64,000 nt of DNA, from positions 24,685,456-24,749,455 of the forward strand of contig OZ024875.1 of NCBI GenBank assembly GCA_964017185.1, given 5' to 3'. The stretch is from Rugalucina vietnamica (Eukaryota; Mollusca; Bivalvia; Lucinida; Lucinidae). The position numbers and the translations under genes were made by a program. This document shows, in pieces, positions 24,246-64,000 of this stretch (position 1 is its first letter; each line of letters begins with the position of its first letter). The notes beneath the pieces were generated by a model. The model was given only the letters and a program-made list of their open reading frames with translations. It was not told the DNA's origin and did no database searches.

Positions 24246-24417
24246 GCAGGGTTGCCACGCTCAGGCGGATACAAAATTCCCTGACATTTCCCTGACGGAA
24301 TTTTAAATTTCCCTGACAACATCTTGGTGCGCGGATTCTAAGGGTAGCAAAAGAACCCTAAATTTTGAAAAGTCATAAATTACTATTACACACCAATCAG
24401 AACTTAATTCAACATAC

Positions 24418-40640: not shown

Positions 40641-40720
40641 CTAACAAACATACGAACAGAAAGACGAAAACTATATACCCCATCTTCATAAATGTCGGGG
40701 GTATAAAAATAATATGATTA

Positions 40721-40853: not shown

Positions 40854-41067
40854 CAACCGGTGCCAAGCTGTCACAGAAGAGGAGCAAGGTCACGAAGTGT
40901 ATCGGAGTGCAGGTTAGCCAGCAGATCTAAAGAGGACCTACCCGAGATCTAGTTTCTTCACATACAAGCATCCAACTTGATAATTCGAATAGGGTTATTA
41001 AAACAGTGCAAGTTATTCAACACTTGTGCCCATTCTGTGAAAACACCAAACTGTTTGTAAAGTTTAC

Positions 41068-41177
41068 CAGTAGAGAACTGAACAATAAATATTCCCCAAA
41101 TGATGGAGAATCTAAGCAGATCTGTCCTCAGCATAAGATAAAACATGACAGTTAATGGCCCTGTGTCAGGATAACCT
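41068..41177 (-). CDS. TRPV channel exon: S5 helix, version a
   Basis: This is an alternative S5 exon of the same channel. A 110 bp exon is bounded by 'gcatgttgtatttcag' and CTACTG/gtaaac. Product in order: GYPDTGPLTVMFYLMLRTDL, then LRFSIIWGIFIVQFST. It aligns without gaps to the exon at 17425-17534 (shared GP..VM.Y.M..DL.RF.II..IF), but about half the residues differ. It enters in phase 2 and leaves in phase 1. The S3-S4 exon ends with AG, which with the first A gives Arg and a smooth FFA-R-GYPDTGP junction. It lies 2.0 kb downstream in gene sense of the S3-S4 exon. Alternatives are a paralogous gene fragment or an exon under decay, but no stop is present. Confidence 0.85.
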
Positions 41178-41212
41178 CTGAAATACAACATGCAGCCCAA
41201 TAACAGTAAACA

Positions 41213-42992: not shown

Positions 42993-43192
42993 ACTGACTT
43001 TGTGAGACTGAAGGCTCAGTGAGCTAAAAAGGCTTAAGGTATGAAAAGATGTCATGTGGGATGTTAATGTTGGATACCAGCTTTGTTTTGGAAAGTGTCA
43101 CTCAAGATGCCAACATCATTTTCATAAAACATAGCAATTGTAGCATACCTTGCATTTAATTGTTGTTGTTAATTTGAAATATAATAGCTTAC

Positions 43193-43344
43193 CTTGCAAA
43201 AAAAAGCAAGAAGAACCATGATCCAGGAATGGCAAGAATTAACAATACATCCTCTACATATTGAAGTTGTAGAAACCGAAATGGTATACATGCTAATATT
43301 GTCACACATGATAAAATGAACACTGTATGGGCAGGAGCATGCCG
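43193..43344 (-). CDS. TRPV channel exon: S3-S4 segment
   Basis: This exon encodes membrane segments S3-S4 of the TRPV channel. A 152 bp exon is bounded by 'cctgttttctttttcag' and TGCAAG/gtaagc. Product in order: RHAPAHTVFILSCVTILACI, PFRFLQLQYVEDVLLILAIP, GSWFFLLFFA plus two bases. The LQ..EDVLLILAIP.SW.FLLFFAR pattern is characteristic of TRPV S3-S4. It enters in phase 0, joining the S2 exon cleanly, and leaves in phase 2, as both S5 exons require. The hydrophobic stretches are intact and no stop is present. Confidence 0.88.
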
Positions 43345-43570
43345 CTGAAAAAGAAAACAGGTTAATATATACCACCGGTGGATTTACTTCATCCTGATGA
43401 GTAAAATCCTTGACAAAAATGATGGAGAAATTTATGTGCAGTTCCAATCTATTATTAATGTGCAGTTCCAATCTATCAAATTACATGCCTGACGGGCTAC
43501 TCAAGGTCATGAGCTCAAGTCTTCCCTATAACAAAAAATTACAAAACAAAAACAAGAAGAATTGTGTTAA

Positions 43571-45086
43571 AACCAGAGGACCAATGGTCCTGTAAACGCT
43601 CATCTGAAACCCGAGATATATACCAATAAACTTGTTTGACTAGAATGGTACTATACATGTATATAACCCCAGGGCCGGGTCAGAGCAACCCCTGGAGTCA
43701 ATTTCTTTTTGAAAACACAAAAATGCAGTCCATTTGCCAATTTACTGCAAGTTTTGCCCTTCAAATGACATTTTCACAATTTTCCCCATTCAAATGCATC
43801 GGCGACCTACATGTAAGTTGACCTTGCCGTAAAATAGGTCAAGGTCATCCAAGGGTCACGATTTATATAAACTTTGTAGATGTCCCATTGCCTGATGCTT
43901 CATGTCAAGTTTCAAAATCATAGGCCTCCTGGTTCTGGAGAAAAAGATTTTTAAAGGTTTTTGCTATTTATAGCCATGGCAGCTATCTTGGTCATGTGAC
44001 CTTGACCATTTATATACACTTTCAATCCCACTTCTAACAATGCTCCTCATAAAGTTTGGCTTTGATTGGCCAAGCAGTTTCAGAGAAGATCTTTGAATAT
44101 CACTGTAATATACATGTATATTGCCCCGGGGTGGGGGCAGACAGACCCCTGGGGTCCAAATTTTTTCAGAATCATCAATCTTAAGTCCATTTGCCCATTT
44201 CCTACAAGTTTTTCCCTACAAATGACATTTAAACACTTTTCCCAATTCAAATGTATGAGCGACCTATGTTGACCTTGCCGTAAAATAGGTCAAGGTCATC
44301 CCAGGGTCATGATTTATATAAACTTTGTAGAGCTCCAGTCACTGATGCTTCACACCAAGTTTCAAAATCATTGGCCTTCTGGTTCTGGAGAAGAAGATTC
44401 TTTAAGTTTTTTTCTATTTATAGCCATGGCGGCCATCTTGGTCATGTGACCTTGACTATTTATATAAACTTTCTTTCCCCCTTCCCAAGGATGCTCCATA
44501 TGAAGTTTGGCTTTGATTGGCCAAGTGGTTTCAGGGGAGAAGATGTTTCATTATTATGGAAATATACATGTATATAGCCCGGGGCAGGGGCAGACAACCC
44601 CCCAGGGGCTAAAATTTTCCATTAACAAAATTAATCTTTTGTCCATTTGCCTATTCCAAGTAAGTTTTACCCATTAAATAGCATTTTACCATTTTTTCCT
44701 ATTCAAATGCATTGGAGACCTAAGTTGACCTTGTCGTAAAATAGGTCAAAGTCATCCTAGGGTCATGATTTATAAACACTATGATGGGCACGCGTCCCCG
44801 ATACTACATACCAAGTTTTGTGGAAATTGGCCCACTGGTTCTGGAGAAGAAGATTTTTAAAGGTTTTTGCTATTTATAGCCATGGCGGCCATCTTGGTCA
44901 TGTGACCTGGACCATTTATATAAACTTTCGTTCCCCCTTCCTAAAGATGCTCCACATGAAGTTTGGCTTTGATTGGCCAAGTGGTTTCAGAGGAGAAGAT
45001 CTTTGAAATTGTGAACGACGGACGGACGCCGGAGCATGGGTATACTATAAGCTCACCTGTGAGCCTTCGGCTCAGGTGAGGTAAAA
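43571..45086 (+). mobile_element. GCTCACC-family element, three modules
   Basis: Starts ACCAGAGGACCAATGGTCCT and ends with the terminal hairpin (last stem base changed: GGTGAGGT). It has three modules with the 'gggggcagac' block and ERR-type TCAAGGTCA motifs. It lies in the intron between the S2 and S3-S4 exons. Confidence 0.85.
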
Positions 45087-48468: not shown

Positions 48469-48675
48469 CCACGGCAAGTATAAAATAAAATTCCATGATA
48501 ATTCCATGATCGGAGTTAACTTTTCAGGACTGATTTTTCTGTTTATCTATTTATTTTTTTTGTCATATCACACTTTTTAAAAGACAAGAACAGATAATTA
48601 TATTGCAAATGTAACTTACTTCAAGGTATTATTTTACTACATAGGGGGCACTTTGGAGTCAAAACAGGAAATGAC

Positions 48676-48711
48676 TCAAGTGTTTTTCAAGTGTTTTTCA
48701 AGTGTTTTTCA
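48676..48711 (+). repeat. 12 bp tandem repeat, three units
   Basis: TCAAGTGTTTTT repeated three times directly upstream of the promoter-like island. Confidence 0.9.
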
Positions 48712-48714
48712 AGT

Positions 48715-49117
48715 GGCGTATGACGTCATCAACGTCACGCGAAGATGAGTCACGCGGTGAGTCATAAAGGGGGTCAAGTACCGACGCCACGTCGGAGCCA
48801 ATCAACGTCGGGCGTCGTATGAGTCATCGACATCACGCGACCGTGAGTCATACTCTACCCACGCCACTTCAGAATGACGGTTATTTTAAAAACGGTCCAA
48901 TGAAAATTGACGCTAGTGGTAGCCGTTCGCGCTAGATTAAGATGACTCACCAACGTTAAGTACCTGAACCACTTGAAAGGATACAATAGTCGAAACTACA
49001 TAGGCGTTTAAATAAGGGGCCGCTAGTCCGTCACGCCATTTTCTATAGTTGACAACACATCATTGCGTCTAACAAAACGGATTACAAAGTTGAAGTTTTC
49101 AAATCGGAGCATAGAAG
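48715..49117 (+). promoter_or_regulatory. Promoter island with one CRE, five AP-1 sites, CCAAT, TATA-like box and first-exon donor
   Basis: A CRE TGACGTCA lies at 48721. TGAGTCA occurs at 48746, 48758, 48820 and 48844, with an inverted TGACTCA at 48943, a CCAAT at 48798 and TTTAAATAAGG at 49008-49018. The likely transcript start is 20-35 bp later, and AGAAG/GTAAGTT at 49113-49122 is a consensus splice donor without an upstream ATG frame, so the first exon would be untranslated. The segment 48819-48872 is shared with the outer parts of both inverted-repeat arms. It is CpG-rich compared with its surroundings. Confidence 0.6.
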
Positions 49118-49774
49118 GTAAGTTGTAGTGATTTATTTACTACCAGTCGAATTCTTTGATCAGTATTCTTAGCTGTAGATATACATCGTATTCTTTTCTG
49201 TCCAAACTCTACTATCCTTTACATTTCAAGTACTCATAAGTGTCGTCCACTTGACTATTCTTCAAACGGGAATTAAAGTAATTCGAGTATGGGCCACATC
49301 CTGAGAAAACAAAGCAGAAGTTTTGTACATACACAAACAAAGAAGCAGATCATCCCTGCCTGATCTGCGCAATTGATGAGCAATTTTGATTTTGATTGCT
49401 ACACGGATAACAAAAATTTCTTTGATAGCTAAATCAAGCTTCTAGCTATCGTCTGTGATTATATAGGCGTTGAACCCTGTCAGAATATCCTGACACAGCC
49501 TGAGATATTCAATTTAAAGGAAAAACGGTAATTTGAGTCCAACATTCTCATCAAGTCTACACAGCCGAATATGGTACCAAAGCATAGCAAGAGAGTGTCA
49601 TTTGATTAAACCGTGACTGTGAGAACGTGTTTTGTCGAGCCCGGCCAAAATTTTCGATCGACACCAAGACAAACATACGGGAAGAAGGAGTGGGGACCGA
49701 GCTCAGCCATTTGATTGGTCTTCGTTTACTGTCCATACCTACGACACTCAGTATTCGACACCACAACGTATAGT

Positions 49775-49970
49775 ATGGATACGGGACCATCCTTTGCGGT
49801 TACGGACCCGCTTGGTTATCAACGTCGACTGGAAACTTTTAGTGACTGGCAAGTGACAAAGTAGAATGTTTCGCCTGTCATGTCAGGCTTGCGGGTTGAA
49901 AAAAAAAAACACGTAGATCCATGGTCAGAGAACAAAAGATGGTCTGAACGAGGTTGGTATCTCAAATTAA
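49775..49970 (+). pseudogene. Decayed BIR domain (inhibitor-of-apoptosis type)
   Basis: BIR domains are ~70-residue zinc folds of IAP proteins that bind caspases or related partners. Three pieces of one BIR are visible in different frames. YQRRLETFSDW (about 49820-49850) is the opening helix. VECFACHVRLAG (about 49861-49896) is the Cys-x2-Cys zinc ligand stretch. DPWSENKRWSERGW (about 49915-49956) is the H/C-bearing end, here with Asn where His is usual and no clear final Cys. Part of the domain between the first two pieces is missing, and stops and frame changes separate all three. Non-functional. It follows the promoter island by ~0.7 kb on the same strand. IAP genes are expanded in bivalves and also occur in mollusc herpesviruses, so host or viral origin cannot be told. 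Confidence 0.6.
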
Positions 49971-51269
49971 CCGGATGCGCATCAGCCAACACCATTTTGT
50001 ATGACTTGAATTTATTCAAAGATGTTTACTTCGAGAGCTTGACTGCAATTATTTCCTCTTTGCTATGAAATAGCGTTGCTGTCAACATTTTTTCAGTCAT
50101 GTCTGGACGGAGGTATCGCCTGATATGTGTTAACCAATATTCAGGGGAGCTTAACACATATTGTTCAAGGGTACTTACTTGTACTTGTATTTCACACTAG
50201 ACCACCGTTCTCCCAAACACGATCATTTTTGCGTATTGAATAGGCAATCATCTTTGTAGTTTATATGCATCCGAAGTTTACGTTACACACTCACATTGAC
50301 CTTGCCAGTTGAGCTCACACGTTTCGCAAGATGTCTACTTGCTCTAGACTCTTAAAGAACGCAATGTGAAAAGCGTGCTCATGTCTTATTTGACATGTTA
50401 TAATCTCATTTAATATTGAAAACATACACATTTGCGGCAACGCCGTCGACAATTTTAGGCTCACCAATCCTTTCCCCTATGCTGCGCGCTCGTGATTTGC
50501 TCTGCTTTACAACTGACCTCCAAACAGTGATATATTACTCAACAATTCACTACTAGAGCTGATCTATTTCTTAAATGTTTCCTCTGGACGAAAACACTTA
50601 TGCATAGGTGAGCACAAATGCTCATCTATAAAAAAATATTTATAAAAGTTGTATCTATAGAAAAAAAGAAACGTTTTTAAATTTTGCTCAGAACTGTAGT
50701 ATGCCTTGGGCTGACGAGACAATATGCAGAGGAGAGAAAAAAAAAAAAACTCCAGCCGTAACATGTTTCAGAAGTTTCTATCTGGTCACGGAGAAATTCC
50801 TACTTGAAATATTTTCTAGAGGATACAGACTCACACGCAGAGTACCCATGGTTGTGTTGCTATTGAGGGGACTCAATTTGGGAAAGACGCCGATTGTGAT
50901 CAATACGAAGTCAGAAAACACACAATAGCAAGTGACTTATTGCTAATCGAACCAATGTGATGTCAAAGCAATGGACAATGGTTAGTCCCTTCTTCGTTTT
51001 ACACGTCGGTTAAAAATGTTGCTTTCAGCGCTTTGTCTAGATCACGAGTACGTCGCTAAAAATGTTATTCCTTACTACAAGACGATTTTCGAAGCCAGAG
51101 AAGCAGCGAATCGCTTAATTGAATCGTTTAATAACCAACCCGAAGTATTTTACAAACTCTCTTAGCCGCATTCGCTGTCACTGTGAAACAACAACAACAA
51201 CAACAAATCCATTCATTTAAGACACGTTTTTCATGGATATCATACCAGATCCTCATTTATACGGAATGA
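49971..51269. other. Unique DNA with a SINE-tail fragment, no gene seen
   Basis: At 50087-50115 'tcagtcatgtctggacggag' is the inverse of the SINE 3' part at about 32090-32115. A (CAA)5 microsatellite lies at about 51189-51203. The remaining open frames are short and unsupported. Confidence 0.5.
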
Positions 51270-51715
51270 ACTTGTTCCCCGTACCTAGATTCTCCGCACG
51301 AAACTCCATTTTCCGCATGTTTTATGCGGAAATTCTCATGCGGAGTATTGGAACAATATTTCCGCATCGTGCGGAAATCAAACTGTAAAAAATGAAAAAG
51401 AAGAAGGATGTTGCATGCGGAGAATGTTCCGCTTATTTTTCTGCATCATGCGGAGAATTCTCCGCAGCTTGCGGATAAGCAGCGGAATTTGAATGCGGAA
51501 TTCCGCACTGATGCGGAGTATTGGAACATATTTTCCGCATCTTGCGGAAAAGTAACAGGGAATTCTCCGCATGATGCGGAATTCCGCAAGGCAGATTGAT
51601 ATGGAATATATTCCGCTTGATGCGGAACATATTCCGCATGATGCGGAACATATTCCGCATGATGCGGAACATATTCCGCATGATGCGGAGCTCCGCATCC
51701 TGCGGAATACTACAT
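51270..51715. repeat. Cluster of TTCCGCAT / ATGCGGAA inverted repeats with 21 bp tandem core
   Basis: More than twenty copies of TTCCGCA or TGCGGAA in alternating orientation. At 51619-51681 a 21 bp unit GATGCGGAACATATTCCGCAT is repeated three times, and each unit is self-complementary. These produce repetitive reading frames on both strands that are not genes. Sister clusters lie at 53280-53345 and 54120-54450. Confidence 0.9.
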
Positions 51716-52180
51716 TGGATTTTCTGTTCCAGAAAGTTTTTACCATATATGGGTGTGGAGACCACCTTGGTCATGTGACCTGAACCATTTTCTGCTTTAT
51801 ACAAATGTTTGACTCAGCATTCCCTAGGCTTCATATGACTTTTATTTGGCTTTTAAGGGTCGAATGGTGAGGATTGTGGCCACATAAAATTTATTCAAGC
51901 CCTCCAGTAATTTCTTCACTGACAGTTCCAAGGCGGTTTTGATGTGATTTTTCTTTATGTTTTCTGTTTATTCTGTCTGCTTTTCTGTTATACTTGTCAC
52001 TTTTATATTTGGTTGATGTAAGCCAGATGGCTATCTTTGTTGAGACAGAAGTAATCATTTTGCTCTTCATGGGTGTTGTAACATTTTCATGTTGTATTGT
52101 GCTGTACTTAATCATTCGCCTGGTATCCGGTGTGGGATTTTGAATTTGATTGTACAATCTCTATTCTTACTTAAGCTATG
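51716..52180. other. Worn repeat fragment and unique DNA
   Basis: A GCTCACC-family module piece ('accatatatgggtgtggaga') lies at about 51735-51790. The rest is unrecognised. Confidence 0.45.
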
Positions 52181-52184
52181 TTCT

Positions 52185-52720
52185 CACTGTCCCGGTTTAG
52201 CTCCCCAGTTCGCCGGGGGTAAATCAAACCAGGGTAAACCAGGACAAACCGTAATGAACCGTGATAGAACCTTAGTGCTACCGTGGCAAACTGGGAAGAA
52301 CCAAGATAAACCGGGGAGCCTTCGTGGTTGTATAAAAATGTTTAATACAACCGGGGTAAACCCGGGTGAACTGTGAGAGATGTCAAAAACCGGAGCGACA
52401 CAGTGACAAACCTTGATGGCATGGGACTCGAACCAAGACGATCCGGTGCAAACCGTGGGTAACAGGGACAACATAGGGCTATTCCGGCACAAACCAGGGC
52501 TTCACCGGGACTCTACCAGGGTGAACCAAGATGCCACAGGGGCAAACCGGCTTTAATAATTTGGCCATGGTGTACCCCGGTTTACACAGGTGACAGGTGG
52601 GGTGAACCAGGACGATACCGGGCTTTACCGTAGTAAAACCGAGGCACACCGGCCTGCACCAGGACAACACCATGGTACAACTAGGAACAAGACTGGGGCT
52701 ACACGGTAACACCCTGACTG
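52185..52720. repeat. Quasi-periodic AACCRGG tract (~540 bp)
   Basis: Short phrases such as AAACCGGGG, AACCAGG, AACCGTG and their TACCGGG variants recur every ~12-17 bp, without exact copies. GC content is clearly above the flanks. It looks like a very old short-period minisatellite or a structured element. Open frames on both strands follow from the composition. Confidence 0.6.
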
Positions 52721-54119
52721 AGAACACGATCAACTTTGGTAGAAACAGTTACTCGGTTTATCACAGTATACTGGCTTGCCTTCACCGGGGTAGAACTGGG
52801 ACAGTAAGAACAAGGCTAAAGGTCAAGCTGTTTCAGAGAATGCAAAGGAAACACATTTTAATCTGGAGAAAGATATGTCTGAATTGCTTTGAGAAATAAC
52901 TATTGTATATGAAGACCTGTAATTTTGTATTGTGGTTTAACATCCCACTCTAGAGATTCTAATGTTCCTAAATAGTTGTTTTGTTGAACTAAATTCATGG
53001 ACTGAGACAAAATTTATTGAAGCAATCTGCAGTAGCAAATTTCAACACAGAGAAGGCATAGAGCAACATAAAAAGACAATTCATATAAATACTGGCTACT
53101 TACAATGCTAAAGAACTAAACTCCTTAACTATAATTTTCATTATAACACAATTTTAAAAATGGCACATGGTACAACACTTCCTTTCAAACAATGCTTCCT
53201 CTAATATTTGAAAACAGGAAGTGAGTCAGTACTTGAAATTCTGATTTCCTATTGGTCAGCAATAATATATTCAAAATGGTCTGATGCGGAATTCCGCATG
53301 TGGTGCGGAAAAAATTCCGCATGTGATGCGGAGCTCCGCTCAATGCGATACAGGGGTTTGAGGTGCTGGTTTAAAGTCAAGAGAGACAAAAGAAATGTAT
53401 ATTATTACATTATCTCAATATGGTTGTGTTTGTTTGTTTCATTGCTTTATGTCCACATGTAGTCAACAGCTATTGTCATATCTGGACAGTCAGCTATCCT
53501 AACCACACTATTCCTAGACAAGCATGTTTGGGGCAGATTACTAGTACTTAGGGCACATTTCTTTTGTCAGTTGAAGCTAACAAGTGCTCTTGAATCAGTG
53601 GAAGCGAAAATGGGATTAGAAATATTTTCATGTGTGGAATCGAACATGCTAACTTTTGAGCCATCTTCTGGTACACATATATAATTCCTAACATTATAAG
53701 TTTGCTAAAACAAATTGCATAAGTTATAAAATTTCAATAAACTAAATTGTTTCCATGAAATCGTCTGCATCTTTATTATTCATCTTTGTCAGATTAAATA
53801 GCTAAAAGAGTAGAGTCTATGGAGTATTTGAATGGACCTCCAAGAAAGGGTTCCCACTCTCGGGCGGAAGCGAAATTACCTAACATTTCCCAGACTATTC
53901 CCGGACATAATTTCAAATCTCCAGATAACGATATCCTTTGCGCATGGTCTTTAACATTTGACAGTTTGACTCCAGAAATACATGGCAGCGATAATTTTTT
54001 TATAATTGGTATTTTTTTATGAATTTTTTTGTTTGTAAAAAGTCAAAATTTCTGCACTATAATTTTCCTAAGATACAGTGGGACAATGACACATATACAA
54101 AAATTGCCCAAGTAGTCAA
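52721..54119. other. Mostly unique DNA with a TTCCGCAT mini-cluster and a MITE edge
   Basis: 53280-53345 is a short TTCCGCAT cluster. At about 53850-53925 'agggttcccactctcgggcg' followed by TTCCCAGAC-type repeats is a worn relative of the CAGGGTTGCCAC element at 24246. No gene recognised. Confidence 0.5.
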
Positions 54120-54450
54120 CGGAATACGGTAAGTTATTTTCCGCATGCAAAATAATCTAAGATATTTTCCGCTTCAAAAATTGTCTGAGTCTACATTTTC
54201 CGCATTGTTTCCGCACTAAAAAAGTATTAAGTCCGATTTTTCCGCTGCTGGTGCGGAAAAGTTTCCGATGAGAGATGCGGAAGAAATTCCGCATATTGTG
54301 AAACCTCTGCGGAGTTCCGCATGTTCATGCGGAATTCCGCACAAAAAATGCTGATATTCCGCATGTTTTTGCTGAATTCCGCATAGTTGATGCGGAATTC
54401 CGCAGATGTTGTGCGGAGTTCCGCATGGTTGATGCGGAGATTTGAGGTGC
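54120..54450. repeat. TTCCGCAT / ATGCGGAA cluster, right-hand block
   Basis: About fifteen copies in both orientations, often as ATGCGGAATTCCGCAT palindromes with 5-25 bp between. With 51270-51715 it brackets ~2.4 kb, so the two blocks could be the subterminal regions of one element. Confidence 0.85.
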
Positions 54451-54597
54451 GGGTCAGAGACAGACTGTTGACTTTCCATAATTGGTTTAGACAGACGATT
54501 CCCGGCAAACAATCTCTGGCTCAAGCAAGATTCTAGTAACTAGAAGAATGTGTTATTCTTGTCAGGAAGGCCAATTGTCAAACACATGACATAGCTT

Positions 54598-54720
54598 ATG
54601 AGTCATCGACATCACGCGACCGTGAGCCATACCCTACATACGCTACTTCAACGAATCAATAGCGACTGCTTTTAGGACCTATTCCTAATGACGTCATGTT
54701 TGTTATATATAAGGAACGCG
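54598..54720 (+). promoter_or_regulatory. Promoter of the left arm: shared AP-1 module, CRE, TATA
   Basis: ATGAGTCATCGACATCACGC + GACCGTGAG at 54598-54626, then CATACCCTAC...ACGCTACTTCA, matches the BIR promoter island at 48819-48872. A CRE TGACGTCA (54689-54696) and TATATATAAGG (54704-54713) follow. The PC4-like frame begins ~60 bp after the TATA box. The right arm has the inverse at about 63865-63980. Confidence 0.65.
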
Positions 54721-54769
54721 GCGGCGTACGGTTGATTATTATTACTATCGATTCTGAAATGAAAACATT

Positions 54770-55202
54770 ATGGAGAACGAGCAAATGTTTTTCGAACTCG
54801 GAAATAACAGATACGTTAAAGTATGCGAATAAATCTCGAGCCAGTTCAGTTGTCTAGATCTTATAGACAGTGTCGTGGAGGAATACAAGAACTCAAAACC
54901 GGTGGGCTGCATGGTACACTTATACGGAAACTATCACGTGTCTGTAAAAAAGTGGTTACCCTCTGGTAAACATACGACGCTGGTTTGTCCCCGACGGCTA
55001 CGAGGAACTCATTCCGACGAAAACGGGCATAGCGCTTACGTTTCTTCAATGGGAGAAACTGAAATCAGCCATGCTTCTCGTTGAGGAACTTCTCGACGGA
55101 AAATTGGACAAAGTCACACTGTGCGAAGATTCTCATCAAAACCAGGAGGGGTCTATGGTGTGTTCTGAATGCAACCCGAACGGGTACATAAACTATTTTT
55201 GA
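54770..55202 (+). pseudogene. Broken PC4-like (transcription coactivator p15/Sub1 family) gene, left arm
   Basis: PC4-family proteins bind single-stranded DNA and assist RNA polymerase II transcription. From an ATG 60 bp behind a TATA box the frame reads MENEQMFFELGNNRYVKVCE and stops at a TAA (54830-54832). The same frame reopens and contains VHLYGNYHVSVKKW. After a one-base shift near 54955 it continues as LVNIRRWFVPDG, then TKTGIALTFLQWEKLKSAML, the typical PC4 strand/turn and GI.L...QWEKL helix. It ends at TGA (55200-55202). The right arm (63375-63807) has the same stop and the same shift. A very small intron instead of the stop is possible, but the frameshift is not explained by one. Confidence 0.65.
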
Positions 55203-55369
55203 AACTTCAGTGACTGGTAACTGTGTTTTCTTAAATACGCCCATAGTTTTAAATGTTTCATGGACTCTTATTTATGTACTTTTTGTTGTTTTTTGTGTGT
55301 TCAAGCGAGTTGTAAGATACTTTTACGAGGCTATTTGTTTTGGTTAGCTTAATTGCCATAGTAAAAAAA

Positions 55370-55756
55370 ATGGACCACATGTGTGAATATCGCCTTGGCC
55401 ACCGGAAAGTGGCTACGAAGTACAACAGTGCAAAGACGCATGTTATACAGACTACTTACGTTTCGGTTCGAGAATGTTACCTCTGTGGGAAAATAAAACC
55501 AGAAACACCCGCCGATGAATTCGTTTCAATCAGGACTAATGAGTGTTTTGACTTGATAATAAAATTCAGAATCATGGAAGAGGATGAAGTATTTAATGAA
55601 CGACCACTTACTTGTAACTGGATGGACTTTATTCCAATGTCTAAAAAAGAAGATCCGCTGTTTATACGGACAAGTAAAATTAAAGAGACAAACTGCCAAT
55701 GTAAATCTTGTAGTTTCTTGAAGCTTTACGTTGACTTTGTAGAAGTACAACGATAG
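55370..55756 (+). CDS. Cys-rich 128-residue protein of unknown function, left arm
   Basis: Intact frame from ATG 55370 (MDHMCEYRLGHRKV) to TAG. I chose this start because the right-arm copy (62822-63208) has the same ATG; the 5' extension to 55340 exists only here. Visible features are a Cys pair C36-x2-C39 (ECYLCGK) and a C-terminal C109-x-C111-x2-C114 (NCQCKSC), which could bind one zinc, and an acidic middle. No signal peptide or membrane segment. I do not recognise the family. The copies differ at Cys5/Tyr5 and Cys/Arg in PLT(C/R)NW. It survives intact in both arms, unlike the PC4-like gene next to it, which hints at selection or very recent duplication. Confidence 0.55.
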   Translation: MDHMCEYRLGHRKVATKYNSAKTHVIQTTYVSVRECYLCGKIKPETPADEFVSIRTNECFDLIIKFRIMEEDEVFNERPLTCNWMDFIPMSKKEDPLFIRTSKIKETNCQCKSCSFLKLYVDFVEVQR

Positions 55757-56092
55757 AACAAATTTAATTGATACTTCATGTACATGTAAGCCTTGTATTT
55801 TGTTTGTCGTATACTTTAACCGTGTATCGTGTATGTATAAATATACATGTGTATCGTATGAATGAATGAAGGTATTTCTAGTCTTGCTTACTGTTTACCC
55901 AATGCGCAAACAAGAAAATGACATGTCGAAAATACATTGTTTTTTTTAGACAAGTCATATTTTTGTCGCATGATCATCAACATTTACATTAATTATAACC
56001 ATTCATTTTTTTCTCACAAATTCTCCGGACACCCAAGCCCGCTTCGTTTCCGTCTCCTTTTCTTCTCCTCACACAAATGCCCATCACGAGCG

Positions 56093-56302
56093 TATATAAA
56101 CCCTTTTTTATAAACCTTAAAATACAGTTGCATTTTGTCACATTATTTCTTGTTACTTTTGCGAAAGATGGATATTCTTCGACCTTTCTTTCCTGAAAGT
56201 CCAGACCTGAATTGCACTTCTAAGCGTACGCTGCCTCCTTCACCAAAGTCAGGAACTCGCCATGGTGTGAGAGGACATGTTCCAACTAGAAGGCGAAGAT
56301 AG
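56093..56302 (+). CDS. 44-codon basic ORF behind a TATA box, left arm
   Basis: TATATAAA lies at 56093-56100 and an ATG 68 bp later at 56168. The frame reads MDILRPFFPESPDLNCTSKR, TLPPSPKSGTRHGVRG, HVPTRRRR and stops at TAG 56300-56302. The Pro/Ser-rich middle and Arg-rich tail suggest a short nucleic-acid-binding or nuclear peptide, or a first exon. It is identical in length and frame in the right arm (62273-62407). The 244 bp arm-specific segment begins just behind its stop. Function unknown. Confidence 0.4.
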
Positions 56303-56319
56303 TGCTGCCGCTTATAAAG

Positions 56320-56566
56320 TGTTTCAAGTCCAGCTTATTGCCTTCGTCCTGACCCCATTTCTCATCAGAACTCATTAGTAAATTGGAATAGGCTTTGATT
56401 CATAATTGCAATACCACTAGCATGCGTTACTTATTGAATATAGTGTTAGAATCAGCACCAGGAAATGTCTGCTCGATTAGTCCACCCCTCTTTTTTGACG
56501 TAGGAGAGATGATGATACCAGTACGAAATATGTAGCCATACAGGCATGGACCCCACCCCCTAAAAA
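56320..56566. other. ~244 bp segment present only in the left arm
   Basis: In the right arm 'cttataaag' runs straight into 'cagcaggtgtgattagg'. In the left arm ~244 bp lie between the same blocks. No terminal repeats are evident, so it may be an insertion here or a deletion there. Confidence 0.8.
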
Positions 56567-56716
56567 AACAGGAGGTGTGATCAGGTGATCGCGAAATGTG
56601 AACATCACCTGCCCATTATAATGCACCAGCCATGTCCATATGACTGATTACAATGCCGAGAAAATGGTAAGAAACGAATGTCCGGTAATTGAAAGCCTTA
56701 TTAATTATTGGCAATT

Positions 56717-57130
56717 GGCATAAGGTCAGTCACAAGTTTACCGCGGCCACGCTGTAGGGATCATCAAGATCATGTTGTCTCCCATAGAACTTTTTAAGAG
56801 TTGGCACAAGCTTCGTCCTGCGATATCCCTTTGACAACAATTTGCTGGTGAGTAACTTCCCCCTATCAACAAAGTCTTCGTAGTTACAGCAGGCTTTAGC
56901 ATAGCGAACTAGCTGAGAGACATATACTCCGTAAGCAGGTGCTGATGGCATATTGCTACTCATAAATGGAAAGTTAACTATTGGGAAATTGAAGTCATCC
57001 CTCTTTTCAACAAGCCTAGTAATAAGCTTTCCATTTTCAATATTAAGATAACAATCTAGGTACGAGGCAGATATATGGCACTTGTGCAAATGTTCCACAT
57101 GTAGATTTTCCTCAGTTGGAACGTTTTCGT
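56717..57130 (-). pseudogene. C-terminal part of a reverse-transcriptase-type protein, left arm (frameshifted)
   Basis: A frame on the minus strand contains ASYLDCYLNIENGKL, then EKRDDFNFPIVNFPFMSSN, PSAPAYGVYVSQLVRYA, LLTSKLLSKGYRR and LKKFYGRQHDL. From memory of the family this block follows the RT palm domain in mobile-element proteins widespread in corals, lancelets and molluscs; the RT catalytic part itself is absent. Near 56740 a small indel relative to the right arm (GTAAAC for TCTAAAC) shifts the frame and ends it early. There is no ATG start; the frame simply follows a stop. The neighbour upstream in the same sense is a DNA-polymerase fragment. Confidence 0.6.
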
Positions 57131-57136
57131 CCTTAC

Positions 57137-57451
57137 CTGGGCTATTTGGTCATCTTGTCTGCACTCAAAATCGAAAATATATACTTAATTGAGCCCATTT
57201 TGTTTATTCATTGAATCAGGCTTGCTCGTTTCCTCTACTCTGACCATGACACAGAGGTGGTTTTCTTTGAAGCAACCCTTACAAACTTTGTAGTACTGTT
57301 CTTCGCATGTAAATAATCTGCCCTTTTGTTTTGCTTTATCTATCTACGGATTACATTCTCGACATCTATAATATGCCTTGCAAGTCGAGTTACCTGCTAA
57401 TGCTTGGTTCAAATGAAGATCATAACAAGTCTGACTGATAAAATTACAGTT
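57137..57451 (-). pseudogene. N-terminal fragment of a Polinton/adintovirus-type family-B DNA polymerase, left arm
   Basis: Protein-primed family-B polymerases of Polintons and related viruses start with Cys/His-rich knuckles before the exonuclease motif. Minus-strand frame pieces show NSTCKAYYRCRECN, CEEQYYKVCKGCFKENHLC and FDFECRQDD. The last is the Exo I motif (D-x-E) in its usual place after the knuckles. In-frame TAG and TAA codons interrupt it; the right arm has the same stops. It ends at GCCCAG/GTAAGG, a perfect splice-donor look. Exo II/III and the polymerase palm are absent. Host-genome relic; no working enzyme. Confidence 0.6.
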
Positions 57452-58930
57452 TCATCGTATATTATGCATCCAATTTTCCCTCATTTTATTGTGTAAATAC
57501 TACAAATATGACATCCATTGTCAATGCTATGTTTATCCTTTTTATTTTAGCCTTTCTTGCATTGTAAACAAGACTGTCTAGAAATCACGTGATCTTAGAT
57601 ATAAGATCATCATGTTGATATTGATAGTAAAGATAGATCAGTATCATCTCTTCTGACCCCTGAAATATTAGCTCATTGAAATGTTCGTTAGATGATATGA
57701 TAATTTAGAAGTATGGCAACACTTTCCTGACGTGTTTCACATCAATGCCACATGTTCTTTGACTCATTGTGTCAAAGGCATTTCATGTTTCCATTCTCAA
57801 ATCAGTGTTTCACCAACAGCTTTTACATGAACGGAATGCATTTTATTTTATATACACATCGTCATTATTATGTATTCATTAAAACTTTTAAACAATTTTC
57901 TGCTTCGTTTTTCTGTCCTAAGCCTTATTTGATTGATTTGTTGTTTTACGACAAATTCGACAAACAAGATTATGTATGGACGTTGCCTCAATTTCGTGAG
58001 ACTTCTAGTCTACATGGGGATGTCATAGCACCCTAAAAGCGCATCAAATTATTCTTGGATAATAATTATGTCTTTTTAGAGCGGATGAGTTGACTAAAGT
58101 CACTTTTCTTAGCCAGGCTCAGGTCTAAGTAGTTGATCAGTAATCAGACGTCTAGTCAACAAGTGATAAATTTTGCCTAAAGAAGGCGAACACATCCTAT
58201 GTGTTTTGGCAGTTCCAGTAGGATCCTACTCTACGAGAAAAACAAACAAACAAACAAACAACAACAAAGAACACGTGTTCTGTTTTCATTGGTTTTAAAA
58301 CATACAATTTATTATATACACGATATAGACAGCATTCAATGAAAGACATAATTATATCCGACACTAAAGTGCTTGTTTCGGACAAAACATTTCGATAAAC
58401 AGCGTAGACTCTGTGTAGCCTGAATGTATCCAATGCTGCAACTAACAACACTTTATCACAGTGACCAAGGAAAACACGATTGATTTTGGTAATGTCATTA
58501 TTGCACATAGAAAGGATATACACTTGACAATAATTAATAAATACGACTTTTATTCGCATCCACCTCAGACACACTGAACATGTCGAAAATGTGAGCCATG
58601 CCTACAACCAAGAGATTTTACCGAAGAAAATAAATACTGTATGGACAGCACACGTCGATAAAGTCACTTTAAAAAGGTAAAAGTAAGCACTAATCAGTAA
58701 ATGGCGCAATCCCAAAGAAATTCCCACTCAAAACTAATTTGACAATCACGTACTTGTACTAGATACAAGGAAAACGTATCGAGTGAATAGCTATTTTCCA
58801 ACTAGTGGTCACTCTACGCTGCGGCAGCGGCAGCGGCGGCGGCGGCGGCGGTGGCGGCGACGGCGGAGCGGCGGCGGCGGAGACGGCGGCTGCGGCGGCG
58901 GCGGCGGCGACGGCGGCGACGGCGGCGGAG
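57452..58930. other. Left-arm middle, no recognised gene
   Basis: Frames at 57752-58036 (plus) and 58197-58574 (minus) are long and mirrored in the right arm at 60786-61070 and within 60247-60625. They have no motif, and the arms are nearly identical at DNA level, so mirroring is not evidence for coding. A (GTTT)n-type stretch lies at about 58240-58262. Confidence 0.5.
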
Positions 58931-59225
58931 TTATCAGTGTATTCAACGCCGCCGAAGGCGGCATCAGTATGTATTCTCTCCGCCGCAGGCGGCGGCGTGT
59001 CGTTATCCCGCCGCGGCGTTATGCCCCTATCCCGCGGCGATTGCGGCGTTTTAACATCGTCCCGAGGCGGCGACGGCGGAGCGGCGGCGGCGGCGGCGGC
59101 GTTATCAGTGTATTCAACGCCGCCGAAGGCGGCATCAGTATGTTGTATTCCCGTGTCGTTATCCCGCCGCGGCGTTATGCCCCTATCCCGCGGCGATTGC
59201 GGCGTTTTAACATCGTCCCGCGGTG
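58812..59225. repeat. GCC/GGC-rich repeat block, left arm, with duplicated ~175 bp unit
   Basis: Long GGC runs with two copies of a unit containing 'gttatcagtgtattcaacgc', 'cgccgaaggcggcatcagta' and 'cctatcccgcggcgattgcg' (58929-59080 and 59100-59222). On the minus strand a 189-codon frame (58759-59328) encodes Ala/Pro runs and two copies of a SPPRDDVKTPQSPRDRGI segment. The right arm has one unit and a base lost in a G-run that breaks this frame. Coding is possible but unproven. Confidence 0.7.
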
Positions 59226-59815
59226 GCGAATAAGTTGCATTATTCTGTGGTAATTTTTGACTGACTCTGTCGCTGTAAGAGTGCTTATGATGTCTGTGTC
59301 TTAACATGACGACTCGTCTTGACTGCATTGCTAAGCAGTCAGGTCAATGTGAAGTATGTTTTTTTCTTCTATTGGCTTACTCCAGAAAGATAGTCTGTTA
59401 CATTTTAATGATTTTAAAGATCTACGTCCTAGGATCGGGAAGCAGCGTAATCAAAAAGAAAATTTCCACTACAAAAAAAAAAAAACAGGCGAGAAAAAAA
59501 AAAACTTAATTGATAAAATGTACGAGGCTGAATCACTGTTTTGGTTCACATTTAACAAAGTGTTTTACAATAATTAAGTTTATGACTTTGTGACCAACCG
59601 AATATTATTTGGCTGTTAACTTTGCCTTGAGCATTTTATTTGTTCTGTCAAATCTAGCACTGTAATCACCTCACTTATATTTGCCAACCATGCTTTCTGT
59701 TATTTATGTTATAGATTGTAACCTTTGTTTTATATTTCTTAACACGAATTTCTCTATTGTTTATTTACTCCACGGGTATGGCTTCAACCGTCTCCGCGGC
59801 TGAACAATCCCCGTC
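59223..59815. other. Unique centre of the inverted repeat (~590 bp)
   Basis: AT-rich, with A-runs at about 59470-59510 and no match to either arm. No gene is recognised. It is long enough that the arms could fold or recombine around it. Confidence 0.8.
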
Positions 59816-61370
59816 GACGCGGTACGATGTTAAAACGCCGCAATCGCCGCGGGATAGGGCATAACGCCACGGCGGGATAACGACACGCCGCCGCCTGCGG
59901 CGGTGGGAATACAACATACTGATGCCGCCTTCGGCTGCGTTGAATACACTGATAACGCCTCCGCCGCCGCCGCCTCCGCCGCCGCCGCCGCCGCTGCCGC
60001 AGCGTAGAGTGACCACTAGTTGGAAAATAGCTATTCACTCGATACGTTTTCCTTGTATCTAGTACAAGTACGTGATTGTCAAATTAGTTTTGAGTGAGAA
60101 TTTCTTTGGGATTGCGCCATTTACTGATTAGTGCTTACTTTTACCTTTTTAAAGTGACTTTATCGACGTGTGCTGTCCATACAGTATTTATTTTCTTCGG
60201 TAAAATCTCTTGGTTGTAGGCATGGCTCACATTTTCGACATGTTCAGTGTGTCTGAGGTGGATGCGAATAAAAGTCATATTTATTAATTATTGTCAAGTG
60301 TATATCCTTTCTATGTGCAATAATGACATTACCAAAATCAAACGTATTTTCCTTGGTCACTGTGATAAAGTGCTTGTTAGTTGCAGCATTGGATACATTC
60401 AGGCTACACAGAGTCTACGCTGTTTATCGAAATGTTTTGTCCGAAACAAGCACTTTAGTGTCGGATATAATTATGTCTTTCATTGAATGCTGTCTATATC
60501 GTGTATATAATAAATTGTATGTTTTAAAACCAATGAAAACAGAACACGTGTTCTTTGTTGTTGTTTGTTTGTTTGTTTGTTTTTCTCGTAGAGTAGGATC
60601 CTACTGGAACTGCCGAAACACATAGGATGTGTTCGCCTTCTTTAGGCAAAATTTATCACTTGTTGACTAGACGTCTGATTACTGATCAACTACTTAGACC
60701 TGAGCCTGGCTAAGAAAAGTGACTTTAGTCAACTCATCCGCTCTAAAAAGACATAATTATTATCCAAGAATAATTTGATGCACTTTTAGGGTGCTATGAC
60801 ATCCCCATGTAGACTAGAAGTCTCACGAAATTGAGGCAACGTCCATACATAATCTTGTTTGTCGAATTTGTCGTAAAACAACAAATCAATCAAATAAGGC
60901 TTAGGACAGAAAAACGAAGCAGAAAATTGTTTAAAAGTTTTAATGAATACATAATAATGACGATGTGTATATAAAATAAAATGCATTCCGTTCATGTAAA
61001 AGCTGTTGGTGAAACACTGATTTGAGAATGGAAACATGAAATGCCTTTGACACAATGAGTCAAAGAACATGTGGCATTGATGTGAAACACGTCAGGAAAG
61101 TGTTGCCATACTTCTAAATTATCATATCATCTAACGAACATTTCAATGAGCTAATATTTCAGTGGTCAGAAGGGATGATACTGATCTATCTTTACTATCA
61201 ATATCAACATGATGATCTTATATCTAAGATCACGTGATTTCTAGACAGTCTTGTTTACAATGCAAGAAAGGCTAAAATAAAAAGGATAAACATAGCATTG
61301 ACAATGGATGTCATATTTGTAGTATTTACACAATGAAATGAGGGAAAATCGGATGCATAATATACGATGA

Positions 61371-61685
61371 AACTGTAATTTTATCAGTCAGACTTGTTAT
61401 GATCTTCATTTGAACCAAGCATTAGCAGGTAACTCGACTTGCAAGGCATATTATAGATGTCGAGAATGTAATCCGTAGATAGATAAAGCAAAACAAAAGG
61501 GCAGATTATTTACATGCGAAGAACAGTACTACAAAGTTTGTAAGGGTTGCTTCAAAGAAAACCACCTCTGTGTCATGGTCAGAGTAGAGGAAACGAGCAA
61601 GCCTGATTCAATGAATAAACGAAATGGGCTCAATTAAGTATATATTTTCGATTTTGAGTGCAGACAAGATGACCAAATAGCCCAG
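61371..61685 (+). pseudogene. Polinton/adintovirus-type DNA polymerase N-terminal fragment, right arm
   Basis: Mirror of 57137-57451, now on the plus strand. The Cys-knuckle region, the in-frame TAG (61476-61478) and TAA (61635-61637), the FDFECRQDD exonuclease motif and the CAG/GTAAGG donor-like end are all conserved. Sharing both stops with the left arm means the gene was dead before the arms separated, or that conversion keeps them alike. Confidence 0.6.
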
Positions 61686-62122
61686 GTAAGGACGAAAACG
61701 TTCCAACTGAGGAAAATCTACATGTGGAACATTTGCACACGTGCCATATATCTGCCTCGTACCTAGATTGTTATCTTAATATTGAAAATGGAAAGCTTAT
61801 TACTAGGCTTGTTGAAAAGAGGGATGACTTCAATTTCCCAATAGTTAACTTTCCATTTATGAGTAGCAATATGCCATCAGCACCTGCTTACGGAGTATAT
61901 GTCTCTCAGCTAGTTCGCTATGCTAAAGCCTGCTGTAACTACGAAGACTTTGTTGATAGGGGGAAGTTACTCACCAGCAAATTGTTGTCAAAGGGATATC
62001 GCAGGACGAAGCTTGTGCCAACTCTTAAAAAGTTCTATGGGAGACAACATGATCTTGATGATCCCTACAGCGTGGCCGCGTCTAAACTTGTGACTGACCT
62101 TATGCCAATTGCCAATAATTAA
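61670..62122 (+). pseudogene. C-terminal part of a reverse-transcriptase-type protein, right arm
   Basis: Same block as 56717-57130, here with an unbroken frame of ~150 codons ending ...LVTDLMPIANN and TAA. It shows YLDCYLNIENGKL, KRDDFNFPIVNF and AYGVYVSQL motifs. The RT catalytic domain is missing and there is no ATG start, so it is a fragment despite the open frame. Confidence 0.6.
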
Positions 62123-62272
62123 TAAGGCTTTCAATTACCGGACATTCGTTTCTTACCATTTTCTCGGCATTGTAAATCAGTCATATGGACATGGCTGGTG
62201 CATTATAATGGGCAGGTGATGTTCACATTTCGCGATCACCTAATCACACCTGCTGCTTTATAAGCGGCAGCA

Positions 62273-62485
62273 CTATCTTCGCCTTCTAGTTGGAACATGT
62301 CCTCTCACACCATGGCGAGTTCCTGACTTTGGTGAAGGAGGCAGCGTACGCTTAGAAGTGCAATTCAGGTCTGGACTTTCAGGAAAGAAAGGTCGAAGAA
62401 TATCCATCTTTCGCAAAAGTAACAAGAAATAATGTGACAAAATGCAACTGTATTTTAAGGTTTATAAAAAAAGGGGTTTATATAC
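62273..62485 (-). CDS. 44-codon basic ORF behind a TATA box, right arm
   Basis: Mirror of 56093-56302. The ATG is at 62407 on the minus strand, and TTTATATA (TATA box inverse) lies near 62476-62483. Frame, length and visible protein text are the same as in the left arm. Function unknown. Confidence 0.4.
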
Positions 62486-62821
62486 GCTCGTGATGGGCAT
62501 TTGTGTGAGGAGAAGAAAAGGAGACGGAAACGAAGCGGGCTTGGGTGTCCGGAGAATTTGTGAGAAAAAAAAATGAATGGTTATAATTAATGTAAATGTT
62601 GATGATCATGCGACAAAAATATGACTTGTCTAAAAAAACAATGTATTTTCGACATGTCATTTTCTTGTTTGCGCATTGGGTAAACAGTAAGCAAGACTAG
62701 AAATACCTTCATTCATTCATACGATATACATGTATATTTATACATACACGATACACGGTTAAAGTATACGACAAACAAAATACAAGGCTTACATGTACAT
62801 GAAGTATCAATTAAATTTGTT

Positions 62822-63208
62822 CTATCGTTGTACTTCTACAAAGTCAACGTAAAGCTTCAAGAAACTACAAGATTTACATTGGCAGTTTGTCTCTTTAATT
62901 TTACTTGTCCGTATAAACAGCGGATCTTCTTTTTTAGACATTGGAATAAAGTCCATCCAGTTACGAGTAAGTGGTCGTTCATTAAATACTTCATCCTCTT
63001 CCATGATTCTGAATTTTATTATCAAGTCAAAACACTCATTAGTCCTGATTGAAACGAATTCATCGGCGGGTGTTTCTGGTTTTATTTTCCCACAGAGGTA
63101 ACATTCTCGAACCGAAACGTAAGTAGTCTGTATAACATGCGTCTTTGCACTGTTGTACTTCGTAGCCACTTTCCGGTGGCCAAGGCGATATTCATACATG
63201 TGGTCCAT
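62822..63208 (-). CDS. Cys-rich 128-residue protein of unknown function, right arm
   Basis: Mirror copy of 55370-55756, starting MDHMYEYRLGHRKV. C36/C39 and C109/C111/C114 are kept. Two amino-acid changes from the left copy (Cys5 to Tyr and a Cys to Arg before NWMDF) leave the presumed metal ligands untouched. Intact frame. Confidence 0.55.
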   Translation of the reverse strand: MDHMYEYRLGHRKVATKYNSAKTHVIQTTYVSVRECYLCGKIKPETPADEFVSIRTNECFDLIIKFRIMEEDEVFNERPLTRNWMDFIPMSKKEDPLFIRTSKIKETNCQCKSCSFLKLYVDFVEVQR

Positions 63209-63374
63209 TTTTTTACTATGGCAATTAAGCTAACCAAAACAAATAGCCTCATAAAAGTATCTTACAACTCGCTTGAACACACAAAAAACAACAAAAAGTA
63301 CATAAATAAGAGTCCATGAAACATTTAAAACTATGGGCGTATTTAAGAAAACACAGTTACCAGTCAATGAAGTT

Positions 63375-63807
63375 TCAAAAATAGTTTATGTACCCGTTCG
63401 GGTTGCATTCAGAACACACCATAGACCCCTCCTGGTTTTGATGAGAATCTTCGCACAGTGTGACTTTGTCCAATTTTCCGTCGAGAAGTTCCTCAACGAG
63501 AAGCATGGCTGATTTCAGTTTCTCCCATTGAAGAAACGTAAGCGCTATGCCCGTTTTCGTCGGAATGAGTTCCTCGTAGCCGTCGGGGACAAACCAGCGT
63601 CGTATGTTTACCAGAGGGTAACCACTTTTTTACAGACACGTGATAGTTTCCGTATAAGTGTACCATGCAGCCCACCGGTTTTGAGTTCTTGTATTCCTCC
63701 ACGGCACTGTCTATAAGATCTAGACAACTGAACTGGCTCGAGATTTATTCGCATACTTTAACGTATCTGTTATTTCCGAGTTCGAAAAACATTTGCTCGT
63801 TCTCCAT
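63375..63807 (-). pseudogene. Broken PC4-like gene, right arm
   Basis: Mirror of 54770-55202, with equal length (433 bp), the same premature TAA after VKVCE and the same one-base shift between VSVKKW and LVNIRRWF. It confirms that the lesions predate the arm duplication or are kept uniform by gene conversion. Confidence 0.65.
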
Positions 63808-63864
63808 AATGTTTTCATTTCAGAATCGATAGTAATAATAATCAACCGTACGCCGCCGCGTTCC

Positions 63865-63985
63865 TTATATATAACAAACATGACGTCATTAGGAATAGGT
63901 CCTAAAAGCAGTCGCTATTGATTCGTTGAAGTAGCGTAGGTAGGGTATGGCTCACGGTCGCGTGATGTCGATGACTCATAAGCTA
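63865..63985 (-). promoter_or_regulatory. Promoter of the right arm: shared AP-1 module, CRE, TATA
   Basis: Inverse of 54598-54720. CCTTATATATAAC (63862-63874), TGACGTCA and the 'gcgtgatgtcgatgactcat' module are all present, reading toward the centre of the inverted repeat. Confidence 0.6.
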
Positions 63986-64000
63986 TGTCATGTGTTTGAC

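What the first reader, a model, noticed from the sequence alone, without database searches (positions are those of the whole stretch)
54577..64000. Giant inverted repeat (>=4.2 kb arms, ~590 bp centre) carrying virus-like gene relics
Seen: mirrored sequence from 54577 to 59222 and 59816 to 64000, with scattered substitutions, a 244 bp arm-specific segment and a unit-number difference in the GCC block. These differences argue against a hairpin read artefact. Each arm holds a PC4-like relic, a Cys-rich ORF, a small TATA-driven ORF, an RT-type tail and a Polinton-type DNA polymerase fragment. Known: Polintons and many large DNA viruses end in long inverted repeats, but arms this long with gene sets are unusual for Polintons. 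Inference: the fused ends of two head-to-head elements, or the terminal repeat region of an unknown integrated DNA virus.
Basis: partly seen in the sequence, partly recalled or inferred. Interest (0 to 1): 0.88.

Follow-up and report, generated by a model that had tools for sequence, protein, structure and literature searches.

The report
Mirror-image defective Polinton transposon family
The giant mirror-image repeat is a crippled relative of Polintons, which are virus-like DNA transposons: one half of the element stands in reverse where the other half should be, and a second copy of the same form sits on another chromosome, so it was able to move in that form.

Summary
The inverted repeat is real, but the window cuts it off. 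In the host assembly the element runs from window 48636 to 98586 on the continued scale (C7:24734091-24784041). Its arms are about 7.4 and 6.9 kb around a 593-bp centre, broken by insertions of 3.2 and 31.8 kb. Both ends read ACTACATAGGGGG inward, flanked by a 6-bp target-site duplication (TATTTT). Each arm holds a PC4-like pseudogene, a 128-aa ORF, a 44-aa basic ORF, a Polinton PolB fragment and a 5'-truncated reverse-transcriptase tail. No integrase was found in the parts searched. A second copy on C16 has the same inner junctions, unrelated flanks and a near-duplication (CACAAC/CTCAAC). So this is neither a chance host duplication nor, very probably, an artefact, but a non-autonomous palindromic Polinton derivative inserted as a unit. 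Arms agree within each locus (30 of 6740 and 22 of 4833 compared sites differ) far better than between loci (1.6-4.2%). In the four-arm comparison 74 sites group arms by locus, none across loci, and 26 are private to one arm. The arms were thus equal at insertion or equalised later. Inferred: origin by snap-back copying during protein-primed replication, integrase supplied in trans. A new variant of a known kind.

The parts
48630..48635 (.). Left copy of the 6-bp target-site duplication TATTTT; the right copy follows ext 98586
48636..51277 (+). Left arm, outer part, starting with the terminus ACTACATAGGGGGCACTTTGG; AP-1/CRE-type motifs at 48721-48943 (names recalled)
   Evidence: mirrored at ext 98586-96288 (2317 columns, 98.4%, 8 mismatches) and 64462-64122 (341 bp, 100%); motif places
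51278..54453 (.). 3176-bp insertion in the left arm with inverted ends CCCGTACCT / CCCGCACCT; holds GCGGAATTCCGC-type repeats
   Evidence: the right arm runs uninterrupted across this point
54454..59222 (+). Left arm, inner part
54770..55199 (+). PC4-like pseudogene (one stop, one frameshift, shared by the four arms of C7 and C16)
   Evidence: Pfam PF02229 E 5.7e-9; relatives P0003/P0004 72-73%
55370..55756 (+). 128-aa Cys-containing ORF, open in both C7 arms and both C16 arms; no family found
56168..56302 (+). 44-aa basic ORF downstream of a TATA-like box, open in the four arms
56320..56568 (+). Segment absent from the C7 right arm but present in both C16 arms (one lacking about 80 bp of it): lost from the C7 right arm
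56718..57131 (-). C-terminal tail of a reverse transcriptase, 5'-truncated, lying in the PolB relic
57052..57755 (-). Polinton PolB fragment (residues 349-593 of the L015 PolB), broken
   Evidence: E 2.9e-50 for 57755-57143; the rest to 57052 is weak (E 0.001)
59218..59343 (-). Start of the gene that stands opposite PolB in L015/L016 (Pro-rich N-terminus; putative packaging ATPase by my reading of a Walker-A-like stretch, not recognised by Pfam), at the edge of the centre
   Evidence: E 1.5e-6; in C16 residues 1-64, E 3.4e-10; Pfam negative
59223..59815 (.). Single-copy centre
   Evidence: the same two inner junctions in C16, apart from an 11-bp gap beside one of them
59816..64000 (-). Right arm, window part; continues to ext 64462 and, after a 31.8-kb insertion, ext 96293-98586
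61067..61679 (+). PolB fragment in the right arm
   Evidence: E 2.7e-49
61715..62119 (+). Reverse-transcriptase tail in the right arm, in a 149-aa open frame from 61673
62273..62407 (-). 44-aa basic ORF, right arm
62822..63208 (-). 128-aa ORF, right arm
63378..63807 (-). PC4-like pseudogene, right arm, same lesions as the left

Best explanation
A non-autonomous, palindromic Polinton (Maverick) derivative. Shown: one half of a Polinton-like element (terminus, PC4-like gene, 128-aa ORF, small basic ORF, PolB side, up to the start of the gene opposite PolB) stands in mirror image on both sides of a 593-bp centre. The same palindrome sits at two loci with unrelated flanks, the same termini and the same inner junctions, and with 6-bp target-site duplications (one of them with a mismatch). 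Inferred: it arose once, when a displaced strand of a replicating Polinton snapped back near the GCC-rich start of the gene opposite PolB and was copied into an inverted dimer, losing integrase and the other core genes. It was then integrated by integrase of other Polintons of the genome acting in trans. Also inferred: because a palindromic single strand folds into a hairpin, each round of replication copies one arm from the other, so the arms start equal at each insertion and then diverge, like the LTRs of a retrotransposon.
For: TSDs TATTTT/TATTTT (C7) and CACAAC/CTCAAC (C16) with termini ACTACATAGGGGG at both ends. The C2 element (63444686-63451528) has ACTACATAGGGGC termini, TSD TGCAGC/TGCAGC, a PolB-like fragment (28-57% identity, E 1e-31 to 1e-37) and arms of about 1.75 kb. 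Second palindrome on C16 with the same inner junctions and unrelated flanks (one 39-bp match). PolB fragment in C7 and C16. Polintons in the genome with DNA_pol_B_2 E 3.7e-44, rve E 1.3e-8 and Chromo E 4.3e-7 (L015). Arm pairs: C7 30 of 6740, C16 22 of 4833 compared sites. Four-arm patterns: 74 sites within locus, 0 across, 26 private to one arm. PC4 lesions shared by the four arms.
Against: The C16 duplication has one mismatch in six, and the element start was set at the A before CTACATAG, where the duplications fit. No autonomous parent with these termini plus integrase was found; L015/L016 match the arm's PolB stretch at only 72% in DNA and their own termini were not looked for. The snap-back origin, integration in trans and arm copying at replication are not observed. 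Divergence between loci is uneven (1.6-1.9% in the PC4/ORF part, 3.9-4.2% in the terminal part), which points to recombination between copies and weakens a simple clock. The centre also holds a high-copy repeat without significant PolB or ATPase-like matches nearby.
Confidence: 0.72

Rival explanations
1. Same palindromic Polinton, but the arms were equalised after insertion by gene conversion between the arms (as in sex-chromosome palindromes), not by copying at replication.
For: Arm-to-arm conversion is well known for long inverted repeats (recalled). It gives the same 74:0 site pattern, and the two loci have nearly equal arm divergence (0.445% and 0.455%), as an equilibrium would.
Against: The 22 differences in the inner C7 arm are spread evenly with no unusually long identical tract (KS p 0.88; longest gap 472 bp, chance 0.88). 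The private loss of the 249-bp segment in the C7 right arm was not corrected. Neither excludes conversion.
Confidence: 0.35
2. The two palindromes formed independently from two related linear Polintons by fold-back at the same hot spot (GCC block).
For: Loci differ by 1.6-4.2% while arms differ by about 0.45%; GCC-rich inverted blocks could seed fold-back, and they differ more between arms than the rest does (5 of 134 against 22 of 3993, p 0.0015).
Against: Both inner junctions are the same in C7 and C16. The shared PC4 lesions fit either view, since a broken parent would pass them on.
Confidence: 0.1
3. Host inverted segmental duplication made by a chromosome fold-back, with a single-copy spacer, of DNA that already held Polinton relics.
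For: A single-copy spacer and shared dead genes fit the fold-back model (PMC3907307, abstract and passages); this was my reading until.
Against: 6-bp target duplications at the outer ends, termini shared with other elements, and a second palindrome at an unrelated locus.
Confidence: 0.04
4. Assembly artefact (hairpin read or inverted haplotype).
For: Arm divergence is of allelic size; no read data could be checked.
Against: Centre without symmetry; no N in the span from 48636 to ext 94000 (ext 94001-96119 was not fetched); transition-biased substitutions; private insertions of 3.2 and 31.8 kb; a matching second locus with other flanks.
Confidence: 0.03

Closest known systems
Polinton/Maverick self-synthesising transposons (rve integrase, protein-primed PolB)
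   Same: PolB fragment, and the start of the gene opposite PolB, homologous to Polintons of the same genome; inverted termini; 6-bp target duplication, which PMC12220804 gives as typical of rve integrases (passages)
   Different: Almost wholly arm: 7 kb arms and a 0.6 kb centre; no integrase found; the same half on both sides. PMC12220804 filtered polinton-like viruses for terminal repeats of 100 bp-8 kb, so long repeats as such are known there
Symmetric (snap-back) defective adenovirus genomes such as Ad12 SYREC (recalled; one search listed no paper on it)
   Same: Protein-primed linear DNA; same end on both sides; foreign or single-copy centre (all recalled)
   Different: Here in a host genome assembly, with target-site duplications, at two loci
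Fold-back inverted duplications with disomic spacer (PMC3907307, abstract and passages)
   Same: Single-copy spacer between inverted arms, with inverted homology at the spacer edge
   Different: Those are one-off chromosome rearrangements; here there are target duplications and a second locus
Teratorn (PMC6431247, passages)
   Different: Herpesvirus plus piggyBac, 41-182 kb, with a unique region; none of these genes was seen here

Membership tests
[quoted passage not shown]
   Only a broken fragment (residues 349-593 of 1423) in each C7 arm, E about 1e-49; descent shown, function absent
Polinton/Maverick | rve-type integrase gene | tested here: not met
   No match to the L015 integrase frames beyond chance in the window (best E 0.8) or at E <= 1e-3 in L013, the middle 10 kb of the C16 copy; no rve in Pfam scans of the left arm and of 44.6-54.6 kb. 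The C7 right arm beyond 64000 was not scanned. Hence filed as a non-autonomous derivative, not as an autonomous Polinton
Polinton/Maverick | Packaging ATPase and capsid genes | tested here: not met
   Only the start of the putative ATPase gene. No ATPase or capsid family in the Pfam scans; but Pfam did not recognise the putative ATPase of L015 either (only DUF7128 below its cut-off), so for the ATPase the tblastn result is the better test
Polinton/Maverick | 6-bp target-site duplication | tested here: met
   6/6 (C7), 5/6 (C16), 6/6 (C2 relative)
Polinton/Maverick | Terminal inverted repeats shared with elements of the family | tested here: met
   ACTACATAGGGGS termini shared with the C2 element that holds a PolB fragment
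Fold-back chromosomal inverted duplication | Unique rearrangement without target duplication | tested here: not met
   Second locus, TSDs
Symmetric defective genome of a protein-primed replicon | Same genome end on both sides, core genes lost | tested here: met
   for the core genes and stretches named above
Symmetric defective genome of a protein-primed replicon | Arises by snap-back of a displaced strand | not testable with these tools
   inference

The most novel reading that the evidence does not exclude
Polintons produce defective palindromic genomes, as adenoviruses do. These live on as a transposon family of their own: mobilised in trans, replicated through a hairpin that recopies one arm from the other each round, so that arm divergence dates each insertion and the family evolves in concert without a working replication or integration gene of its own.
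Probability: 0.45. Interest if true: 0.82.

Novelty: new variant of a known kind. Interest (0 to 1): 0.68.

Why it matters
Protein-primed replication of animal Polintons is, as far as I recall, largely inferred from their genes. Palindromic inverted dimers are a footprint expected of strand-displacement replication, so such fossils could test it. They would also give Polintons a class of satellites like defective interfering genomes, and a built-in clock for dating insertions. The PC4 gene expansion that PMC9223095 reports for most bivalves (passages) may in part count copies that ride on such elements; that is a suggestion, not tested here.

Tried and rejected
Rejected: a host fold-back duplication, my leading idea until the genome search answered; a viral terminal repeat; a hairpin-read artefact. 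Led nowhere: Rfam, tRNAs, phage records, PHROGs, NCBIfam, five viral-contig scans, one genome-contig scan, a structure model of the 128-aa ORF (mean pLDDT 33; not searched further), strand folding of the GCC block (z -1.5). The C2:4.1 Mb copy is only a terminus plus the 128-aa ORF region. The C17 copy is interrupted by what looks like a gypsy-type element (my reading of its ORFs). A genome search with the PC4 part of the arm did not complete, and one search scored 40 of 395 candidates, so the number of palindromic loci (two) is a lower bound. Search listings showed no title or abstract start on a palindromic Polinton; subscription papers are not in that library.
Full report
What is there. The window's inverted repeat is real: arms 54577-59222 and 59816-64000 around a 593-bp centre. 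Outside the inner GCC block the arms differ at 22 of 3993 aligned sites, 15 transitions and 7 transversions, evenly spread. The genome search placed the window at C7:24685456-24749455 of a 1.09-Gb assembly in 47 contigs. No call names the species; that it is a bivalve is my guess.

Full extent. 'Ext' means window coordinates continued past 64000. The right arm runs on to 64462, where it is broken by a 31.8-kb insertion with matching inverted ends CACGGGGACCCAACTG... and the 5-bp duplication AATAA; ext 94001-96119 of it was not fetched. The arm resumes at about 96290 and ends at 98586. The left arm is broken by a 3176-bp insertion at 51278-54453 with ends CCCGTACCT/CCCGCACCT and ends at 48636. 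Without the insertions the arms are 7411 and 6941 bp long (arithmetic only). Both ends read ACTACATAGGGGGCACTTTGG inward and are flanked by TATTTT on both sides, a 6-of-6 target-site duplication. Outside the GCC block the arm pair differs at 30 of 6740 sites.

A second palindrome. C16:13410554-13427287 holds the same structure: 22 differences in 4833 compared sites between its arms, the same termini, and flanks CACAAC/CTCAAC (5 of 6). Its right arm has an insertion of 3.1 kb and another of about 1.3 kb, and its left arm lacks the counterpart of 56859-59150. Both inner junctions are the same as in C7, apart from an 11-bp gap beside one of them. The centre lies the other way round, which for a palindrome is just insertion in the other orientation. 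The flanks of the two loci are unrelated: one 39-bp match between 6.5 kb of C7 flank and 13.3 kb of C16 flank. A third element on C2 (63444686-63451528) has matching termini, a 6-of-6 duplication TGCAGC, arms of about 1.75 kb (38 differences in 1748 sites) and a PolB-like fragment inside. It looks like a deleted Polinton with long arms, not a full palindrome.

What it derives from. Two stretches found through the PolB part of the arm (L015, L016) carry Polinton genes. Pfam gives DNA_pol_B_2 E 3.7e-44 in a 1423-aa open frame, rve integrase E 1.3e-8 and Chromo E 4.3e-7 for L015. The gene opposite PolB I call a putative packaging ATPase, from a Walker-A-like stretch and its place (recalled); Pfam did not recognise it. 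The L015 PolB matches both window arms (residues 349-593; E 2.9e-50 left and 2.7e-49 right), and the start of the putative ATPase gene of L016 matches 59343-59218 (E 1.5e-6), at the edge of the centre. In C16 that match covers residues 1-64 (E 3.4e-10). The integrase and the rest of the ATPase-like gene gave only chance matches in the window and none at E <= 1e-3 in L013 of the C16 copy. Pfam gave no integrase or capsid family in the left arm or in 44.6-54.6 kb. The 31.8-kb insertion and the right arm beyond 64000 were not scanned with Pfam.

Gene relics. The PC4-like gene (PF02229, E 5.7e-9) has relatives P0003 and P0004 at 72-73% identity and carries one stop and one frameshift shared by the four arms of C7 and C16. 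The 128-aa ORF and the 44-aa ORF are open in all four arms; the 128-aa ORF has one outside relative at 64%. Between C7L and C16L the 128-aa ORF differs at one base in 384, non-synonymous, fewer than the 6.8 expected from the 1.78% around it (Poisson 0.008); with no silent change, recombination is a likelier cause than selection (inference). For the reverse-transcriptase tail, one search gave 291 proteins with E <= 0.01; the 120 listed all match the tail, and P0067 carries RVT_1. The window matches only the last quarter of P0067, so this is a 5'-truncated insertion; it is present at both loci.

How it most likely works. Shown: the palindrome is one lineage (same inner junctions, same lesions) found at two loci with 6-bp duplications, so it was integrated as a unit. 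In the 3205 ungapped columns of the four-arm comparison (1357 terminal and 1848 PC4/ORF), 74 sites group the arms by locus, none group arms across loci and 26 are private to one arm, while loci differ by 1.6-4.2% and arms by about 0.45%. Inferred: a snap-back of a displaced strand made the inverted dimer; integrase of other Polintons moved it; and hairpin copying made the arms equal again in each round. Later gene conversion between arms is the main rival for the last step. The even spread of differences and the uncorrected 249-bp loss in C7R lean against it but do not exclude it.

What speaks against or limits this. No autonomous parent with the same termini was found, and the termini of L015/L016 were not looked for. 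The C16 duplication has one mismatch. The loci differ unevenly along the arm. The GCC block differs more between arms than the rest (5 of 134 for one pairing, p 0.0015, and 3 of 119 for the other, p 0.034, against 22 of 3993), which could mark an older inverted repeat used for the snap-back or mere repeat instability. Part of the centre (59536-59767) belongs to a high-copy repeat: 38 further places at 75-82% among the 40 of 2428 candidates scored, without significant PolB or ATPase-like matches in the six copies read. The genome search with the PC4 part did not complete, so copy number is a lower bound. No read data were available.

Known or new. Long terminal repeats in polinton-like viruses are known (PMC12220804 filtered for 100 bp to 8 kb; passages), and the same paper takes repeat identity as a sign of recent mobilisation. 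PMC6431247 (passages) describes Polintons as typically 15-25 kb with protein-primed PolB and a DDE integrase. PMC10294476 (passages) reports Mavericks in all mollusc genomes that it analysed. A Polinton derivative that is nearly all palindrome, at two loci with target duplications and concerted arms, did not appear in the listings. The nearest analogue that I recall is the symmetric defective adenovirus genome.

Noticed in passing
ext 64463-96287 (C7:24749918-24781742), beginning in L009 at 463: A 31.8-kb insertion with matching inverted ends CACGGGGACCCAACTGTTAATCGTGATT and a 5-bp duplication AATAA, holding tandem arrays in inverted orientation (65.4-68.3 and 91.8-94 kb): itself a giant DNA transposon candidate; ext 94001-96119 was not fetched.
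   Followed up: partly
48818-48871 and 54597-54650 (mirror 63927-63980): A 54-bp sequence with a TGAGTCA (AP-1-like, recalled) motif, 91-93% identical, occurs near the element terminus and again just upstream of the PC4-like gene; similar stretches (85-94%) lie near the termini of related elements on C2, C7, C11, C16 and C17.
   Followed up: partly
59536-59767: Part of the centre is a high-copy repeat (38 further places at 75-82%, 40 of 2428 candidates scored) without significant PolB or ATPase-like matches in the six copies read.
   Followed up: partly
window 372-9253, 21170-26419, 39897-45007: Interspersed tandem arrays with periods of about 120-180, 255-300 and 454-465 bp, many with AGGTCA motifs.
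   Followed up: no
3701-4852 (+): 384-aa open frame with RVT_1 (E 2.6e-12): a reverse-transcriptase remnant.
   Followed up: no
L015:1638-9768, L016:1892-9993: Two closely similar Polintons (PolB 98.5% identical) with long open PolB, putative ATPase and integrase frames in the same genome: possible helpers.
   Followed up: partly
L013:988-1371 versus window 55370-55753: The 128-aa ORF differs by one base in 384 between C7 and C16 although its surroundings differ by 1.6-1.9%: recombination between copies or constraint.
   Followed up: no
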